Below, in pieces: positions 5,702-37,609 of a stretch of DNA of 64,000 nt. Origin of the DNA: Psychrobacillus sp. FSL K6-4046 (GTDB taxonomy: Bacteria; Bacillota; Bacilli; Bacillales_A; Planococcaceae). Position 1 is the stretch's first letter; each line of letters begins with the position of its first letter. Location: positions 2,535,312 through 2,599,311 of the forward strand of contig NZ_CP152020.1 of NCBI RefSeq assembly GCF_038624605.1. The letters are read 5' to 3'. The translations under genes and the position numbers were made by a program. The notes beneath the pieces are model-generated. The model was not told the DNA's origin and ran no database searches. It was given only the letters and a program-made list of their open reading frames with translations.

Positions 5702-6787
5702 TTAAATTTTTTGTTTAATGCGATACACATAAGCTAATACCTCAGCTACCGCCTTAAAGAATTCATCGGGAATTCGTTGACCAATTTCAACCTGGTCATA
5801 CATCCCTCTAGCCAGTGGCCGATTTTCAACCATTACCACGTCATTTTCCTTAGCAATCATTTTAATCTTTTGAGCAACGTAATCTGCACCTTTGGCCACT
5901 ACGATTGGGGCTTCCATTGATTGGTCATCGTACTTTAGTGCAATAGCATAATGAGTAGGATTCGTAATGACAACATCAGCTGTAGGAATTTCCTGCATCA
6001 TTCGACGCATGGCCATTTCTCTTTGTCTCTGTCGAATACGTGATTTAATAATAGGATCTCCTTCTGAGTTCTTATGTTCGTCCTTTATATCCTGCTTAGA
6101 CATCTTCAAATTTTTCTCGTAATCAAAACGCTGATAGAAGAAATCTAAGATCGATATAAACAACAAGACAAGGGAAGCGACAATACCCATCATCCCTGTG
6201 AGCCAGCCTATCGTTGATAAGGTGTCCCAAGCAGTTTTGAAGGACAAAGAGAGTACTTGCTCAAGGTTCATCCATAAAATCATCGTTGTAACAGATCCTA
6301 TAAATGTAATCTTAAGAATGGATTTTAATAGTTCAATGACCGCCCTCATCGAGAAGATTCGCTTAAGTCCCTTTATCGGATCTATTTTCTTCAAATCAAA
6401 TTTCAAAGGCTCCGTCGTAAAGAGCAAGCCAAACTGAAAGAAATTTGCAGCAACAGCAGCAACTACCGCTACTAACATGATAGGAAGCAAAATCATAGCC
6501 ATTTCCATTAGCATATCCTTATAAATCTCAATGGCTATGGGGATGGAAATTGAATCCATTAACATATACTTTGTAAAAGTAACATTGAAGAAAGTAAAAA
6601 TCTCATTTCGTAAAAAACCTGCAAAGAAAAACATAAAGACGAATACTGCTAGTAACACAATGGCACTTGTAACATCCTGACTTTTTAGCACTTGTCCTTT
6701 TTTTCGAGAATCCTGTCTTTTTTTAGGAGTAGCCTTTTCTGTCTTTTCTCCTGCGAAGTACTGTAAATCCAATCGGAGCATTAACAT
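5702..6787 (-). CDS. flhB: Flagellar export switch protein FlhB
   Basis: FlhB is the export-gate subunit that switches substrate specificity from rod/hook to filament proteins when the hook is complete. It has four membrane segments in roughly residues 35-220 and a cytoplasmic domain with the autocleavage motif NPTH at about 276-279. The ATG giving MLMLRLDLQYFAGEKTEKA is preferred because AGGTGG lies 8 bases upstream and the N-terminus then matches B. subtilis FlhB. The start sits right after the fliR stop. Its C-terminal domain has a stand-alone homologue in this window at 33761-34042. Confidence 0.95.
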   Translation of the reverse strand: MLMLRLDLQYFAGEKTEKATPKKRQDSRKKGQVLKSQDVTSAIVLLAVFVFMFFFAGFLRNEIFTFFNVTFTKYMLMDSISIPIAIEIYKDMLMEMAMILLPIMLVAVVAAVAANFFQFGLLFTTEPLKFDLKKIDPIKGLKRIFSMRAVIELLKSILKITFIGSVTTMILWMNLEQVLSLSFKTAWDTLSTIGWLTGMMGIVASLVLLFISILDFFYQRFDYEKNLKMSKQDIKDEHKNSEGDPIIKSRIRQRQREMAMRRMMQEIPTADVVITNPTHYAIALKYDDQSMEAPIVVAKGADYVAQKIKMIAKENDVVMVENRPLARGMYDQVEIGQRIPDEFFKAVAEVLAYVYRIKQKI

Positions 6788-6788
6788 A

Positions 6789-7565
6789 TTAGCCACCACC
6801 TAAAATTATCATTAAATCTCGCATAGCGATGATCATCATCTCGAATACTTTTTGCATAACAGCCAGTAAGACTCCCATCATGACTAATAACACGATAAAC
6901 GTAACCCCAATTTTTATAGGGAATCCCACTACAAAAATATTTAACTGAGGAACTGTACGAGCTGTTATTCCTAACGCGATATCCACTAGAAATAGAGTCG
7001 CCACGATAGGAATAGACATCTGGAAGGCAACTGCAAAAACTCCCGCAAATGTTTTCATAATGAATTCCACATAATTTTCTTGTCCAAAAGCAAGCCAAGT
7101 CGTTTCCATAGGGATAAACTGATAGCTATAAAAAATTCCATCTAAGAGCAAATGATGACCATTTAAAGCTAACAGTAATAAAAGTGCAATAATATTTAAA
7201 AATTGTCCTATCAACGGACTTTGCGCTCCAGTTTGAGGGTCTATTACATTGGCAATTGCAAACCCCATTTGGAAGTCGATAAATCCGCCAGCAATTTGAA
7301 TTGCAGAAAGAATGATATAGGCTAGTAACCCTACAAATAAGCCTACCATTACTTCCTTGATGATTAATAATATGTATTCTCCGTTAATTTCAAAAGGACT
7401 CACATCCATCGTGTAATACATCATCCAAGAGAGAATCACGGCAAAGGCAATTTTGTGTGTAGCTGGAATAGTACGATGTGAAAACAGTGGCAATGTAATC
7501 ATGAACGCTGAAACTCTAGCAATAATTAATAGTAATACAGTTAGTCTAGGTATGATCTCTTCCAT
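6789..7565 (-). CDS. fliR: Flagellar export gate protein FliR
   Basis: FliR is a membrane subunit of the export gate that assembles with FliP and FliQ into the helical protein channel. The product is very hydrophobic with several membrane segments and contains the family stretch LPLFSHRTIPATHK. The ATG giving MEEIIPRLTV was chosen because it places the conserved arginine at residue 17 as in B. subtilis FliR; length is then 258 residues. This ATG has no clear ribosome binding site and lies 4 bases after the fliQ stop, so translation is probably coupled to fliQ. A TTG four codons upstream is an alternative. Confidence 0.93.
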   Translation of the reverse strand: MEEIIPRLTVLLLIIARVSAFMITLPLFSHRTIPATHKIAFAVILSWMMYYTMDVSPFEINGEYILLIIKEVMVGLFVGLLAYIILSAIQIAGGFIDFQMGFAIANVIDPQTGAQSPLIGQFLNIIALLLLLALNGHHLLLDGIFYSYQFIPMETTWLAFGQENYVEFIMKTFAGVFAVAFQMSIPIVATLFLVDIALGITARTVPQLNIFVVGFPIKIGVTFIVLLVMMGVLLAVMQKVFEMMIIAMRDLMIILGGG

Positions 7566-14559: not shown

Positions 14560-15768
14560 TTATACCTCTATTTCACTTAGAAATTCTTGGAACGTGGTTT
14601 GTATATCTGAAACTGAAACATCTGAATCTTCTTCTTGTTGATCATGCTGTCTATGTTGTTTAAAAGTAGAGTCTTGGAAACCTTGGTTTTTCTCCTGTTT
14701 TGCTGTGTCTTGCAATGCTTGGGTAATCTCTAGCTTCTCTATTTGTATATTTTGATTTGCCAGTCCTTGTCTTAATTGACCAGAATGCGTATCTAGCATT
14801 TCTTTACCTAAGGCAGTTGATGCAAGCATTTTTGCAGTTAAGATTCCATCCTTTTGTATCAACTCAATGCGGATCGTTCCAAGCTGTTCAGGATATAGCT
14901 TAATCACTAATCTATTAGCCCCTGCTGCTTGTCCAAATTGAACCCGGTTCATCAACTTTTGAAGTTCTTTTATAAACTCCTCTGACTGAGCTGATTTTTG
15001 TGTAGGGAGAGTCATGGACACTGTCTCTACTTTTGTTTGTACAGTGATTGTCTGACCTTGATTTACAGAAGTGGTTTCTTTACTTTCTGTTACTACTTCT
15101 GTACTCATTCCTTTAGTAACTGATTGATTCATTACCACTTGTTGTATAAATGCTTTAGTTACGGGAGTAGAGTTTCTACCTTGTATCAATGATAAATTTG
15201 TTAAGTTTTCCTTTAAAGTTTCCAATGTTTGTTTTAGATCAAAAAGTGTCGTTTCTTGTTTGAAGGTCAAATCACTTTTGTTTCCTATAAGTTGGACTAC
15301 CTTTAAAAGCTCTACTGCTTGTTTTGCTTCCACTGGACTTGTAATCTTATTCGATGCTTGTCCATTTAATGTTAAAAGGATAGAGTCAACAAGCTTTTGA
15401 GGCTGTTCCATTACATTCGCAAGAATTTCCCAAACATCCTGTTTCTGATCTGGGTTCTCCTGTAAATCTTCAAGCTTGCTTAGCAATTTATTTAACAATT
15501 GATGTAAGTCATTTGAATCTACTAGTAGTTCATCCGTTTGAAGTAAATTCTGTGCATCCTCTATGGATTCGGCATCTAATAGAGAAAGTAAATCTTGTAT
15601 AAGATTTTGCTCTGTTTTCACAGGGCTTTCAACATTAACAGATGGTACAGACTGACTGGAAAGAATTTGTCCAAATACATTTCCAAATCCTTGACTGTTA
15701 CCTGTTGGCAACTCTGTTTTAGGTTGCACAGCAGCAGGAGGTCTCATATTAAATATCGCTATGCTCAA
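14560..15768 (-). CDS. fliK: Flagellar hook-length control protein FliK
   Basis: FliK is the secreted molecular ruler that triggers the FlhB specificity switch. It has a long Q/S/T-rich N-terminal ruler region and a C-terminal switch domain with the signature NRLVIKLYPEQLGTIRIEL followed by LRQGLANQNIQIEKLEI. The chosen TTG start follows AGGAGGTGA by 8 bases and gives 402 residues. A GTG four codons upstream overlaps the ribosome binding site, and an ATG (MRPPAAVQ) seven codons downstream is another choice, so the exact start is uncertain. A second FliK-like gene lies at 34039-35877. Confidence 0.9.
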   Translation of the reverse strand: MSIAIFNMRPPAAVQPKTELPTGNSQGFGNVFGQILSSQSVPSVNVESPVKTEQNLIQDLLSLLDAESIEDAQNLLQTDELLVDSNDLHQLLNKLLSKLEDLQENPDQKQDVWEILANVMEQPQKLVDSILLTLNGQASNKITSPVEAKQAVELLKVVQLIGNKSDLTFKQETTLFDLKQTLETLKENLTNLSLIQGRNSTPVTKAFIQQVVMNQSVTKGMSTEVVTESKETTSVNQGQTITVQTKVETVSMTLPTQKSAQSEEFIKELQKLMNRVQFGQAAGANRLVIKLYPEQLGTIRIELIQKDGILTAKMLASTALGKEMLDTHSGQLRQGLANQNIQIEKLEITQALQDTAKQEKNQGFQDSTFKQHRQHDQQEEDSDVSVSDIQTTFQEFLSEIEV

Positions 15769-15804
15769 TTTTTCTTTCACCTCCTCTCACATGCAAAATA
15801 CGAT

Positions 15805-33760: not shown

Positions 33761-34042
33761 TTACTTCTCTCCTCTTTCTTTATCTACCCTATACACAAAT
33801 GCAAAAACCTCTGCAACCGCCTGATAAAGTTCTTCGGGTATGGATTGGTTAATATCTAGCTTTCCTAGCAGTTCTACTAGACTAGCATCCTCTTGTATTG
33901 GTACAGAATGCTCCAATGCCTTTTCTAAAATATTTTCTGCTATTTTCCCTTTACCCTTAGCTACTACCGTAGGAGCATCCGATTGACCAGGTTTATATGT
34001 GAGGGCGATAGCCTCTTTCCTTTTATATTTTCCTTCCGTCAT
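33761..34042 (-). CDS. ylqH: FlhB C-terminal-domain-like protein (YlqH family)
   Basis: This 93-residue protein matches only the cytoplasmic C-terminal domain of FlhB. Its EAIALTYKPGQSDAPTVVAKG aligns with FlhB YAIALKYDDQSMEAPIVVAKG, and both share IPEELYQAVAEVFAFVYR-type endings. There is no membrane region, and the NPTH autocleavage motif is replaced by KRKE, so it resembles the already cleaved fragment. It overlaps by 4 bases the FliK-like gene upstream. The same pair (ylqG-ylqH) exists in B. subtilis; the function is unknown to me. Confidence 0.9.
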   Translation of the reverse strand: MTEGKYKRKEAIALTYKPGQSDAPTVVAKGKGKIAENILEKALEHSVPIQEDASLVELLGKLDINQSIPEELYQAVAEVFAFVYRVDKERGEK

Positions 34043-35877
34043 ATCCTTATATCCACTCCTTGCTCTTTAGAAGAAGAGTTATTTTGCCATAGGTTTGACA
34101 TTTTTTGCTGTGCAAAGCTTTTTATAAATATTCCAGATAATTGATAACCCGCAGTAACCAGTCCATCCTTTAATGTAGCTTTAAACTTATTCGCTATCGT
34201 TTCAATTGTCTGGTCATCATTGAAGAGATTAATTGTTACAATTTTATTTTGAACCTGCATATCTATTACTGTTTCCTTAAGGGAATCTAGTTGGAGATAA
34301 AAAATTATTCGGGCAAAATCTGAATCTATTTTCCCATCTTCTTTCATTCTCCCATTCCATTCAAGAGTTGCATCCATTCGTTTACCTAAAAATTCTAAAG
34401 GAACTTGCATTAATAATTGATGTTGGGGACCATTTTCACCCGATAGGAGCTGCAAACCATTCATCCGACTAATAATCGATTCGGCTCCATCTCTAACAAT
34501 AGCCGATATATTAGGCATTTGTAGTAGTTCTACAAGCTGTGGTTTTAGCTGGCTTGCCAGTTGGCGCACTTCATCTTTCCCACTCGCTAAACTTCCTTCA
34601 TAGCTAAATCCAAGCATTTTTAGAGTTTCTTTCATTGCCATTTCAAAGGCTTTACCATCTAGTTGACTTAGTACTGCTTGCTCTGCTTGATTTCTAAATT
34701 GGATAAGAGAAGAGTCCTTATTAATATTGGTTACTTGCTCTAAAGTTTGATTAATGGAATTGATAGTCATTCCTTTTCCCAATATAGAAACTAAATGATC
34801 TTTTGGTGTAAGTCCATTTGAATCTATTTTAAAAACTGCTTGCTGGCTTTGCTCAGAGAAGACCTTAACTAATGAATGAGCTACTAGATTAGGTTTTGCT
34901 TCTCCTTCTTTAATATTCATTAAAACTTGTTCCTTTTGAGATGATGAAAGTAAGGGCTGATTTTGAATCCAGCTTCGCAACTGCTCAACTACTCCCAGTT
35001 TATTTTCTATACTTGGCTGCATTAGTTTGCTAATGATTTCCCCTGCTGTTTGTTTTAATACTGGGTTATTTGAAATTGGCACCGGATTATTCAATGTCGC
35101 CTCAGAAGGTAAGATAGAAGCGGTTATAAGCTGTTGTAATATAGGTAAACGAATAGCAGATGGAAGCTGTGTATTTAGAAGAGTTTGTAGCTGTTTACCT
35201 AATAGAGCACCTGCTACAGGAAGATGAAAAGGTTCTCCTATCTTCTGTAGGTTTTGTACAATAGATTCTTTTTGTGTTGGAGAAAGTTGTTGTTCCTGCT
35301 GTAATGCAGTTTTCAAATTAGTTATTAGTAAAGGGAAACCAGTAGTAGTTTTACCACTCAATAAAGTATCAAACATATTAGATGTCAATGGAATTTTTAA
35401 TTCTATCATTTTTTGAATTGCTTCTAGTCCTCCTTTTAAAGTAGCATTAGGAGGTAAATTCTTAATCAGCTGTTCAGCCTGTATAAGTATTTCCTTAGAG
35501 ATAGGTAATTGTTCCTTTATAAAAAATTGAATGATTGCCTGCATCTCACTCGATTTACTTAAATTCATCGCCTGGAGCAACTGCTGAGACTGTTGTGCAA
35601 TTGAATTCCCTCCACTCAAGGGACCAGTAACTACCTTTAGTTGAATTTCAGGTGCCGACTTTGTTACTTGAAAGAAGTGGGCATCACCTGTTTTTAAAGG
35701 GGTTTCAAGTTTAGCGATGATCTTTTGATTGCCTATTTGCATTTCCGCTGTTTGATTTGGGAATAGTTTTTTTATTGTTCCATGTACGACTTGCCCTTCT
35801 TTCAAAGGAGCCGATACCTTCGATGAAATAACATTTGGTGCGTTCGATTGGATGGACGAAAAAGAAGGCCCACTCAT
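34039..35877 (-). CDS. ylqG: FliK-like glutamine-rich protein (YlqG family)
   Basis: This 612-residue protein is rich in Q, L, S and I, without a signal peptide or membrane helix. Its C-terminal part (about 485-600: VPLEFLGKRMDATLEWNGR and later LKDGLVTAGYQLSGI) resembles the switch domain of FliK-type hook-length proteins. A beta-barrel-like N-terminal region (VHGTIKKLFPNQTAEMQIGN) is also visible. It overlaps rnhB upstream and the FlhB-like gene downstream by 4 bases each, so the three are probably translated together. Family resemblance is moderate and function is unknown. Confidence 0.85.
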   Translation of the reverse strand: MSGPSFSSIQSNAPNVISSKVSAPLKEGQVVHGTIKKLFPNQTAEMQIGNQKIIAKLETPLKTGDAHFFQVTKSAPEIQLKVVTGPLSGGNSIAQQSQQLLQAMNLSKSSEMQAIIQFFIKEQLPISKEILIQAEQLIKNLPPNATLKGGLEAIQKMIELKIPLTSNMFDTLLSGKTTTGFPLLITNLKTALQQEQQLSPTQKESIVQNLQKIGEPFHLPVAGALLGKQLQTLLNTQLPSAIRLPILQQLITASILPSEATLNNPVPISNNPVLKQTAGEIISKLMQPSIENKLGVVEQLRSWIQNQPLLSSSQKEQVLMNIKEGEAKPNLVAHSLVKVFSEQSQQAVFKIDSNGLTPKDHLVSILGKGMTINSINQTLEQVTNINKDSSLIQFRNQAEQAVLSQLDGKAFEMAMKETLKMLGFSYEGSLASGKDEVRQLASQLKPQLVELLQMPNISAIVRDGAESIISRMNGLQLLSGENGPQHQLLMQVPLEFLGKRMDATLEWNGRMKEDGKIDSDFARIIFYLQLDSLKETVIDMQVQNKIVTINLFNDDQTIETIANKFKATLKDGLVTAGYQLSGIFIKSFAQQKMSNLWQNNSSSKEQGVDIRI

Positions 35878-36653
35878 ACTTTCACCTCACTTTTTAATAT
35901 AGATTTAATCGGTTCAAACGTTTTACGATGATGCTCACTTGGACCATGCTGCATAATCATTGCTATATGTTCCTTTGTACCATAGCCTGCGTGTTTATTG
36001 AAAAGATAGACAGGATACTGCTCGTGAAGTTTATCCATATATTCATCTCTTGCTGTCTTTGCCAAAATAGAAGCAGCTGCAATTGCTAAACTTTTAGCAT
36101 CTCCTTTAATAAGGGAGTGATTTTCTATATCTATTGGTAGTTTCATAGCATCTACCAATACAACACTCGGTTGAATCTTTAAGCTAAGCACAGCTTCGGA
36201 CATCGATTGTTTTGTTGCTTCATATATATTTAACGTGTCAATTTTTCCAACTGATTGAAAATGTATGAAGTAACTAATAGCATTTTCTTTTATTTTTAAA
36301 GCTAATTCATTTCTTTTTGCTCTGGATATTTGTTTAGAGTCATTTAATCCTATTAAGTTATTTGTATCTTCGCTTAAAATAACCGCGGCAGTCACAACTG
36401 GACCTGCTAGCGGCCCCCTTCCTGCCTCATCGACTCCGGCTATTAGTCCACTTCGATTAACATCAAAACTTTTATCAAACATTACCTTCTCAATATGAGC
36501 TTCTTTTTCTAGTCTTTGGACTTGTTGTTTTCTCTTCCAGCTTTCCAATAATTTCTTTGCTCCAGCCCGTTGATCTTCTTCAAGTTCTTTAAACCAGTCT
36601 TCTGTGCCATCTGCAACTATTAATTTTTCTTTTATATCTTGTAAACGTAACAA
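35874..36653 (-). CDS. rnhB: Ribonuclease HII
   Basis: RNase HII removes ribonucleotides from DNA and RNA-DNA hybrids. The catalytic region starts GVDEAGRGPLAGPVV and includes KGDAKSLAIAAASILAKTARDEYM and the histidine-rich GPSEHHRKTF end. I placed the start at a TTG (following GAAGTGA by 5 bases), giving 259 residues, near the 255 I recall for B. subtilis. A GTG three codons upstream is an alternative. The open frame continues to a GTG overlapping the rbgA stop, but that would include a terminator hairpin and foreign-looking sequence. Confidence 0.92.
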   Translation of the reverse strand: MLRLQDIKEKLIVADGTEDWFKELEEDQRAGAKKLLESWKRKQQVQRLEKEAHIEKVMFDKSFDVNRSGLIAGVDEAGRGPLAGPVVTAAVILSEDTNNLIGLNDSKQISRAKRNELALKIKENAISYFIHFQSVGKIDTLNIYEATKQSMSEAVLSLKIQPSVVLVDAMKLPIDIENHSLIKGDAKSLAIAAASILAKTARDEYMDKLHEQYPVYLFNKHAGYGTKEHIAMIMQHGPSEHHRKTFEPIKSILKSEVKV

Positions 36654-36701
36654 TAAAATCACTTCAGCTTTCTTTGCTTTATGTATGTATCGGTTAAAAA
36701 T

Positions 36702-36707
36702 ATTATA
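36702..36707 (-). promoter_or_regulatory. Possible -10 element upstream of rnhB
   Basis: A perfect TATAAT on the minus strand lies just after the rbgA terminator and about 50 bases ahead of the likely rnhB start. The -35 region at 17-base spacing (TGGTAA) is weak and falls inside the terminator stem. Confidence 0.35.
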
Positions 36708-36709
36708 AA

Positions 36710-36745
36710 TCGAGAAAACCCTCTTTACCAGAAGGTAAAAAGGGT
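36710..36745 (-). terminator. Rho-independent terminator between rbgA and rnhB
   Basis: The minus-strand RNA forms a 12-bp stem, ACCCTTTTTACC with GGTAAAGAGGGT, one G-U pair, around a UUCU loop, followed by UUUUCUC. It lies right after the rbgA stop and so argues that rnhB starts downstream of it. Confidence 0.7.
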
Positions 36746-36754
36746 AGAATTTTT

Positions 36755-37609
36755 TCACTCATATTCGTCTACAAAATCGAAGGTTAGCTTACCTAGTTGC
36801 TGATTTCTAATATCACGAACAATTAGCTCAGCCACTTGATCATAGTCAATTTCACCGCCCGATGCAAAGCATCTTCTGAGTTTACCAATATGATCAAAAG
36901 TGTCTACTAAATCCTCACTGACTTTTGTAATATTATATCGCTCTTCCATTCTCTTTGGATAATGTTCTTCTAAAAAACGTAGCCCATATACTGCTAAGTC
37001 TTCCATGTTGATAACAGCATCCTTAATGGCACCAGTTAAAGCAAGTTTATAGCCTATTATTTGGTCTTCAAATCTGGGCCATAAAATACCCGGCGTATCT
37101 AATAGCTCTATTTCCTTTTCAACTTTAATCCATTGCTGTCTTTTGGTTACACCTGGAGTGTTTCCGGTCTTAGCAATATTCTTTTTGGCAAAGCGATTAA
37201 TTAAAGTAGATTTTCCAACATTCGGAATTCCTACAATCATAGCTCTAATTGGTCTAGGTTTAATCCCGCGTTCTTTCATACGGTCCCATTTAGGCTTTAA
37301 AAGCTCTTTAGAGGCCTTAAAAACCGCTTGGAGTCCTTTCCCTTCCAAAGAGTTTATCGCAACAGTAGGGTGCCCTTTTGACTCGAAATAAGCTATCCAT
37401 TTTTTGGTTTGCATATCATCAGCCATATCCACTTTGTTTAGAATAAGTAGCCTTGTTTTTTGATGGACTACCTCGTCTAACATAGGATTTCTTGAAGACA
37501 ATGGTAAACGTGCATCTATCAGTTCAAAAATAATGTCTACAAGCTTTAGATTCTCGGTAACTTCTCTTCTTGCTTTGGCCATATGACCCGGAAACCATTG
37601 TATTGTCAT
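36755..37609 (-). CDS. rbgA: Ribosome biogenesis GTPase RbgA (YlqF)
   Basis: RbgA is an essential GTPase for maturation of the 50S ribosomal subunit. It is a circularly permuted GTPase: G4 NKVD at 58-61 precedes G1 GIPNVGKS at 127-134 and G3 DTPG at 171-174, followed by a C-terminal RNA-binding helical domain. The 284-residue length and start ([16 protein letters not shown]) are typical. It lies 77 bases downstream of lepB with no terminator between. Confidence 0.97.

What the first reader, a model, noticed from the sequence alone, without database searches (positions are those of the whole stretch)
33761..35877. FliK-like and FlhB-C-like gene pair outside the flagellar operon
In flagella, FliK acts on the C-terminal domain of FlhB. 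Here a large Q-rich protein with a FliK-like C-terminus overlaps by 4 bases a 93-residue protein equal to FlhB's cytoplasmic domain. The small protein lacks NPTH, so it looks like a permanently cleaved fragment. Both partners of a known interaction therefore occur as a linked, membrane-free duplicate beside rnhB. The pair also exists in B. subtilis (ylqG/ylqH), yet I know of no defined function.
Basis: partly seen in the sequence, partly recalled or inferred. Interest (0 to 1): 0.6.

Follow-up and report, generated by a model that had tools for sequence, protein, structure and literature searches.

The report
Paired spare parts of flagellar switch
Next to the flagellar genes lies a conserved gene pair, a second FliK-type switch protein plus a free copy of the FlhB piece that FliK acts on; the two are almost never apart and are lost with the native flagellum, so they are probably a built-in accessory of the flagellar export switch whose exact job is still unknown.

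Summary
33761-34042(-) is a free FlhB C-terminal fragment (FlhX; YlqH-type) without NPTH. It overlaps by 4 b the 612-aa YlqG-type gene 34039-35877(-). That protein has no direct Pfam hit, but profile comparison, Pfam hits in its relatives and two predicted models of relatives show a FliK-type switch (T3S4) domain. The pair is a strict unit: 46/46 and 40/40 YlqG-like loci have flhX next door; starting from FlhX, 65/80 loci do, over several phyla. FlhX is an old paralogue, not a local copy. The pair follows the native flagellum, not sporulation: in 151 family genomes FlhX never occurs without FlhB. It was cleanly co-deleted in 12/12 losses examined, and every FlhX-less FlhB sampled is foreign. 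New details: YlqG ends in Phi-D-Phi-x-Phi-COOH (86/88; background 2/564), the same end as classical FliK (E. coli GVDIFA) and like the FlhB strand that FlhX lacks. Two predicted models place this tail near that empty slot, at low confidence. Native FliKs of this family have lost the tail. Best reading: an accessory of the FliK/FlhB switch in which YlqG binds FlhX. FlhX and flhX-fliK neighbours were already known; the job is untested.

The parts
33761..34042 (-). flhX (ylqH-type): 93-aa free FlhB_CC-like protein, no NPTH, no transmembrane part
   Evidence: PF01312 positions 262-335, 75.3 bits; best NCBIfam match TIGR00789 flhB_rel 109.2 bits, just under its cut-off 117.35; FlhB/EscU/YscU cytoplasmic domains in PDB; substrate-pocket residues conserved in the family
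34039..35877 (-). ylqG-type gene: 612-aa second FliK-type (T3S4) protein
   Evidence: single unit with flhX in 46/46 and 40/40 loci; alignment A1
34105..34317 (-). FliK_C (T3S4) domain of the ylqG-type protein, residues 521-591
   Evidence: HHalign probability 97%, E 9.4e-11 against FliK C-domains; PF02120 above cut-off in relatives
34042..34059 (-). conserved C-terminal tail GVDIRI-COOH (residues 607-612)
   Evidence: pattern Phi-[DN]-Phi-x-Phi at the C-terminus in 86/88 non-redundant relatives against 2/564 unrelated ORFs; E. coli FliK ends GVDIFA
35623..35814 (-). conserved N-terminal beta-rich segment of the ylqG-type protein, about residues 22-85 (GQVVHGTIKK..LKVV)
   Evidence: one of the two conserved blocks in alignment A1; no known family matched
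35874..36758 (-). rnhB (RNase HII), upstream neighbour, 4-base overlap with the ylqG-type gene
   Evidence: PF01351; rbgA-rnhB-[ylqG-flhX]-sucC synteny
14560..15780 (-). fliK of the fla/che cluster (comparator); lacks the C-terminal tail (ends FLSEIEV)
   Evidence: PF02120 50.5 bits; sequence
5702..6799 (-). flhB of the fla/che cluster (comparator), with ADVVITN-PTH
   Evidence: PF01312 1-335, TIGR00328 439 bits

Best explanation
[quoted passage not shown] FlhX is a ready-made FlhB_CC: it keeps the pocket that holds early export substrates, but starts after the autocleavage point and so lacks the strand that FlhB_CN contributes. YlqG is a second FliK-type protein: the T3S4 switch domain and the FliK C-terminal pentapeptide, joined to a different, beta-rich N-terminus instead of the hook ruler. 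Proposed mechanism: YlqG binds FlhX through the T3S4 domain, and its C-terminal tail lies in the sheet position that FlhB_CN's strand occupies in FlhB. Together they supply or remove an exchangeable FlhB_CC at the export gate and so tune the switch from rod/hook to filament export. Shown here: linkage, co-loss, dependence on the native flagellum, T3S4 homology, conserved pocket, conserved tail. Weakly supported: docking of the tail (low-confidence models). Inferred: direction and purpose of the regulation.
For: Linkage 46/46 and 40/40 from the YlqG side and 65/80 from the FlhX side, across several phyla. FlhX without FlhB: 0 of 151 family genomes (117 both, 18 FlhB only, 16 neither; hypergeometric 1.4e-12, phylogeny ignored) and 1 fragmentary case of 249 in the phylum. 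Clean co-deletion between rnhB and sucC in 12/12 genomes lacking the pair. All 14 sampled FlhX-less FlhBs lie in a foreign clade. T3S4 domain; predicted fold of relatives matches PscP SS 5cuk (Foldseek prob 1.00, rmsd 2.4 over 67) and FliK 2rrl. Pocket residues 286/287/341/344: A/G 79/89, P 89/89, A 88/89, L/F 86/89. Tail: 86/88, same as E. coli FliK GVDIFA. FliK's last five residues are proposed to engage FlhB_CC and flip the switch in Salmonella (PMC13344023). In two read-through models the first aligned tail residue falls on EscU 255 / FlhB 262, i.e. the strand before NPTH.
Against: No functional data for the pair in the papers held. The tail has pLDDT under 50 in both models, the chains were joined by reading stops as Gly, and only aligned ranges, not coordinates, could be inspected. 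Half of the pair-bearing relatives outside the window's family (6 of 12) and most pair-bearing genomes of the phylum also keep a tail on FliK, so the pair is not simply its replacement. Some Selenomonadaceae, Lachnospiraceae and Eubacterium loci have FlhX without a recognisable YlqG. Three genomes (G027, G108, G069) keep the pair with a foreign FlhB. No sigma-D promoter was evident.
Confidence: 0.52

Rival explanations
1. Spare part only: FlhX backs up FlhB_CC when that is lost or degraded, and YlqG merely stabilises it; no regulatory role.
For: H. pylori HP1575 acts as a 'spare part' when FlhB_CC is deleted (title of Wand et al. 2006, seen in the reference list of PMC3040844; the paper itself is not held). 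FlhX keeps the FlhB_CC pocket.
Against: A pure back-up would not need an obligate FliK-type partner with the switch tail, nor stay a distinct lineage over several phyla.
Confidence: 0.22
2. Decoy or brake: YlqG-FlhX titrates early substrates or the FliK tail and so delays switching, as Flk and FlhB_CC hold the early state in Salmonella.
For: Conserved substrate pocket without membrane anchor; FlhB_CC acts as an inhibitor of late secretion in PMC13344023.
Against: Needs amounts comparable with the substrates; expression is unknown.
Confidence: 0.2
3. The pair serves another secretion process (sporulation channel, nanotubes) that borrows flagellar parts.
For: Gene position in a housekeeping gene row next to rnhB.
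Against: Non-sporing flagellate relatives without SpoIVA (G022, G024, G025, G028, G032, G051) keep the pair; spore formers without FlhB (G020, G036) lack it.
Confidence: 0.05

Closest known systems
FlhX / HP1575-type FlhB C-terminal homologue (TIGR00789 flhB_rel; COG2257; B. subtilis YlqH, the last from memory)
   Same: Short soluble FlhB_CC-like protein in flagellate bacteria; COG2257 was already tied to flagella by phyletic pattern (PMC1489924); FlhX is listed as a flagellar export component in PMC9321776 and PMC10746217
   Different: Here shown to be locked to a FliK-type partner; the window protein scores just under the TIGR00789 cut-off
FliK (T3S4 domain; PF02120)
   Same: C-terminal switch domain and C-terminal pentapeptide
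   Different: Different N-terminus, not in the fla/che cluster, present in addition to FliK; in this family FliK itself lacks the tail
flhX-fliK neighbours of Nitratiruptor (Campylobacterota)
   Same: The two gene types are named together as lying outside the flagellar cluster (PMC9321776)
   Different: Named there as fliK itself; here it is a paralogue beside a normal fliK elsewhere
FlhB / EscU / YscU cytoplasmic domain
   Same: Fold and substrate pocket
   Different: No membrane domain, no NPTH, no strand before the cleavage site
PscP substrate-specificity domain (5cuk)
   Same: Predicted fold of the YlqG-family C-domain
   Different: Injectisome ruler, not linked to a free PscU fragment here

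Membership tests
FlhX (TIGR00789 flhB_rel) | Score above the curated cut-off | tested here: not met
   109.2 against 117.35 bits, full profile covered 1-82/84
FlhX (TIGR00789 flhB_rel) | Short FlhB_CC homologue separate from FlhB, in a genome that has FlhB | tested here: met
   one side of a branch with FlhX of several phyla
FlhX of the HP1575 'spare part' type | Replaces FlhB_CC in export | not testable with these tools
   needs complementation of an FlhB delta-CC strain
FlhB | Membrane domain and NPTH autocleavage site | tested here: not met
   93 aa, match only at profile 262-335, no NPTH
FliK | PF02120 above its cut-off in the protein itself | tested here: not met
   no hit at E<=1 in the window protein
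FliK | T3S4 (FliK_C) homology by profile comparison | tested here: met
   HHalign prob 97%, E 9.4e-11, residues 521-591; relatives pass PF02120
FliK | C-terminal switch pentapeptide Phi-[DN]-Phi-x-Phi | tested here: met
   GVDIRI; 86/88 relatives; E. coli FliK GVDIFA
FliK | FliK-type fold in the window protein's own model | not tested
FliK | N-terminal hook ruler, secretion and hook-length control | not testable with these tools
   N-terminus is a different conserved block; function needs experiment
FliK | Place in the fla/che cluster as the genome's FliK | tested here: not met
   the cluster has its own fliK at 14560-15780

The most novel reading that the evidence does not exclude
The FliK/FlhB switch works by strand exchange: the FliK tail takes the place of the FlhB_CN strand on FlhB_CC. 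In the window's family this last step has been handed over in trans from FliK, which lost its tail, to YlqG, with FlhX as a pre-cut FlhB_CC that YlqG's tail completes.
Probability: 0.2. Interest if true: 0.78.

Novelty: new variant of a known kind. Interest (0 to 1): 0.56.

Why it matters
How FliK turns hook completion into a change of export specificity has been open for decades; recent work has FliK's last five residues engaging and ejecting FlhB_CC (PMC13344023). A natural, free, pre-cut FlhB_CC that almost always travels with its own FliK-type protein carrying the same five residues is a soluble, separately deletable version of that interaction. It makes the FliK-FlhB contact accessible to binding and structure work, gives a widespread unassigned gene pair a concrete hypothesis, and predicts a division of labour between FliK and YlqG in Bacilli.

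Tried and rejected
Direct Pfam, NCBIfam, PDB and BLAST comparisons of the 612-aa protein gave no FliK match; the homology rests on profiles and relatives. Two mixed alignments for folding (A3, A4) misaligned the YlqG rows onto FlhX and were dropped in favour of natural same-frame read-through rows (A5, A7). A model of the window's own YlqG was not made because both model jobs went to the pair. Sporulation link rejected. A simple rule 'FliK lacks its tail wherever the pair exists' was rejected: in the phylum 41 of 53 FliKs of genomes counted as FlhX+ still match the tail pattern. A tail kept only as ribosome-binding sequence for flhX was considered and rejected, since it persists where the genes do not overlap (L062, L067). 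Sigma-D promoter scan uninformative. Papers: no functional study of ylqG/ylqH found in the library; only an incidental ylqG P457Q mutation in evolved B. subtilis.

Full report
Observation. The small protein (93 aa) matches only the last 74 positions of the FlhB family and is 43% identical to the end of the window's own FlhB. FlhB there reads ADVVITN-PTHYAIALKY; the small protein begins MTEGKYKRKEAIALTY. So it lacks NPTH and also the strand just before the cleavage site. The large protein has no direct FliK hit.

Is it FliK-like? Yes, by three routes. Relatives that clearly align with it pass the PF02120 cut-off in their C-termini (G053, G046, G055, G047). A profile of about 90 such C-domains against a profile of true FliK C-domains gives probability 97%, E 9.4e-11 over 71 columns, residues 521-591 of the window protein. 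Predicted models of two relatives match the PscP specificity domain (5cuk, Foldseek prob 1.00, rmsd 2.4 over 67) and, more weakly, FliK_C (2rrl). The window protein itself was not modelled.

The pair is a unit. Searching with the large protein only, all 46 distinct loci fetched among relatives had flhX next door. At phylum level 40 of 40 did, 38 in the order ylqG-flhX and 2 reversed. Searching instead with FlhX only among 84,980 species genomes, 65 of the 80 loci kept had a YlqG-like gene next door, in Bacillota, Nitrospirota, Desulfobacterota, Chloroflexota, Fibrobacterota and Methylomirabilota, going by the record titles. Some genomes carry two pairs.

It belongs to the flagellum. In 151 genomes of the family, counted from the table: FlhB and FlhX 117, FlhB alone 18, neither 16, FlhX alone 0 (chance 1.4e-12 if genomes were independent, which they are not). 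In 249 genomes of the phylum the only FlhX-like hit without FlhB is one assembly in about 220 contigs (G413); there a second match was taken as FlhX, which miscounts a few broken FlhBs. In all 12 genomes lacking the pair that were examined, rbgA-rnhB-sucC is intact and both genes are gone together. The FlhBs of all 14 FlhX-less genomes sampled lie in a clade outside the native FlhBs of this and other families, and none lies near its genome's rnhB locus (G149, G082 and G070 on the same contig at 0.4 to 1.8 Mb). The simplest reading is that the native flagellum and the pair were lost, and a foreign flagellum came without the pair. Non-sporing flagellates keep the pair and spore formers without flagella lack it.

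Age. FlhX and FlhB_CC separate by a single branch with support 100/99 (84 columns, FlhB sampled from Bacillota only). FlhX is therefore an old paralogue and not a local duplicate.

Anatomy and mechanism. FlhX conserves the FlhB_CC pocket for early substrates (A286, P287, A341, L344 in Salmonella, pocket named). The YlqG family ends in Phi-[DN]-Phi-x-Phi-COOH (GVDIRI in the window): 86 of 88 non-redundant members against 2 of 564 unrelated ORFs. Classical FliK ends the same way (E. coli GVDIFA), as do FliKs of 26 of 27 FlhX-less genomes in the phylum. In Salmonella the last five residues of FliK are proposed to engage FlhB_CC and drive its ejection (PMC13344023). The 12 native FliKs of the window's family that were read lack the tail, as does the window's own; the two foreign ones have it. 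The tail also resembles the FlhB strand A-D-V-V-I before the cleavage site, which FlhX lacks. In two models of natural same-frame read-through pairs (stops read as Gly, linkers of about 28 and 47 residues) the first tail residues align with EscU 255 / FlhB 262, the start of that strand. Confidence there is under 50, so this is a lead and not a result.

What is known. FlhX as a family, its tie to flagella by co-occurrence (PMC1489924), its listing as an export component, the HP1575 'spare part' title, and flhX-fliK outside the flagellar cluster of Nitratiruptor are prior knowledge. What seems new is the strictness of the pairing, the co-loss, the shared FliK tail and the loss of that tail from FliK in this family.

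Verdict. A real, old and conserved flagellar module, a variant of the FliK/FlhB switch with an untested role.

Noticed in passing
window 14560-15780 and loci L083-L101: FliK of the window and its family ends in an acidic stretch (..FLSEIEV) and lacks the C-terminal tail found in E. coli FliK and most Bacillota FliKs.
   Followed up: partly
L237-L245, L252-L262, L268-L270: Several genera of the family carry a foreign FlhB clade away from the native locus: apparent replacement of the whole flagellar system.
   Followed up: partly
L026, L248, L249, L237, L238, L239: Three genomes of genus g11 keep the ylqG-flhX pair although their FlhB is of the foreign clade.
   Followed up: no
L063, L067, L068, L103, L104, L106, L108: A second pair in some genomes forms its own FlhX subclade (support 100/91).
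   Followed up: no
L146, L163, L167, L178, L202: FlhX preceded by a short gene that looks like rnhB and not by a YlqG-like gene (Lachnospiraceae, Eubacterium, Defluviitaleaceae).
   Followed up: no
window 35623-35814: Conserved beta-rich N-terminal block of the YlqG family without a known family match.
   Followed up: no
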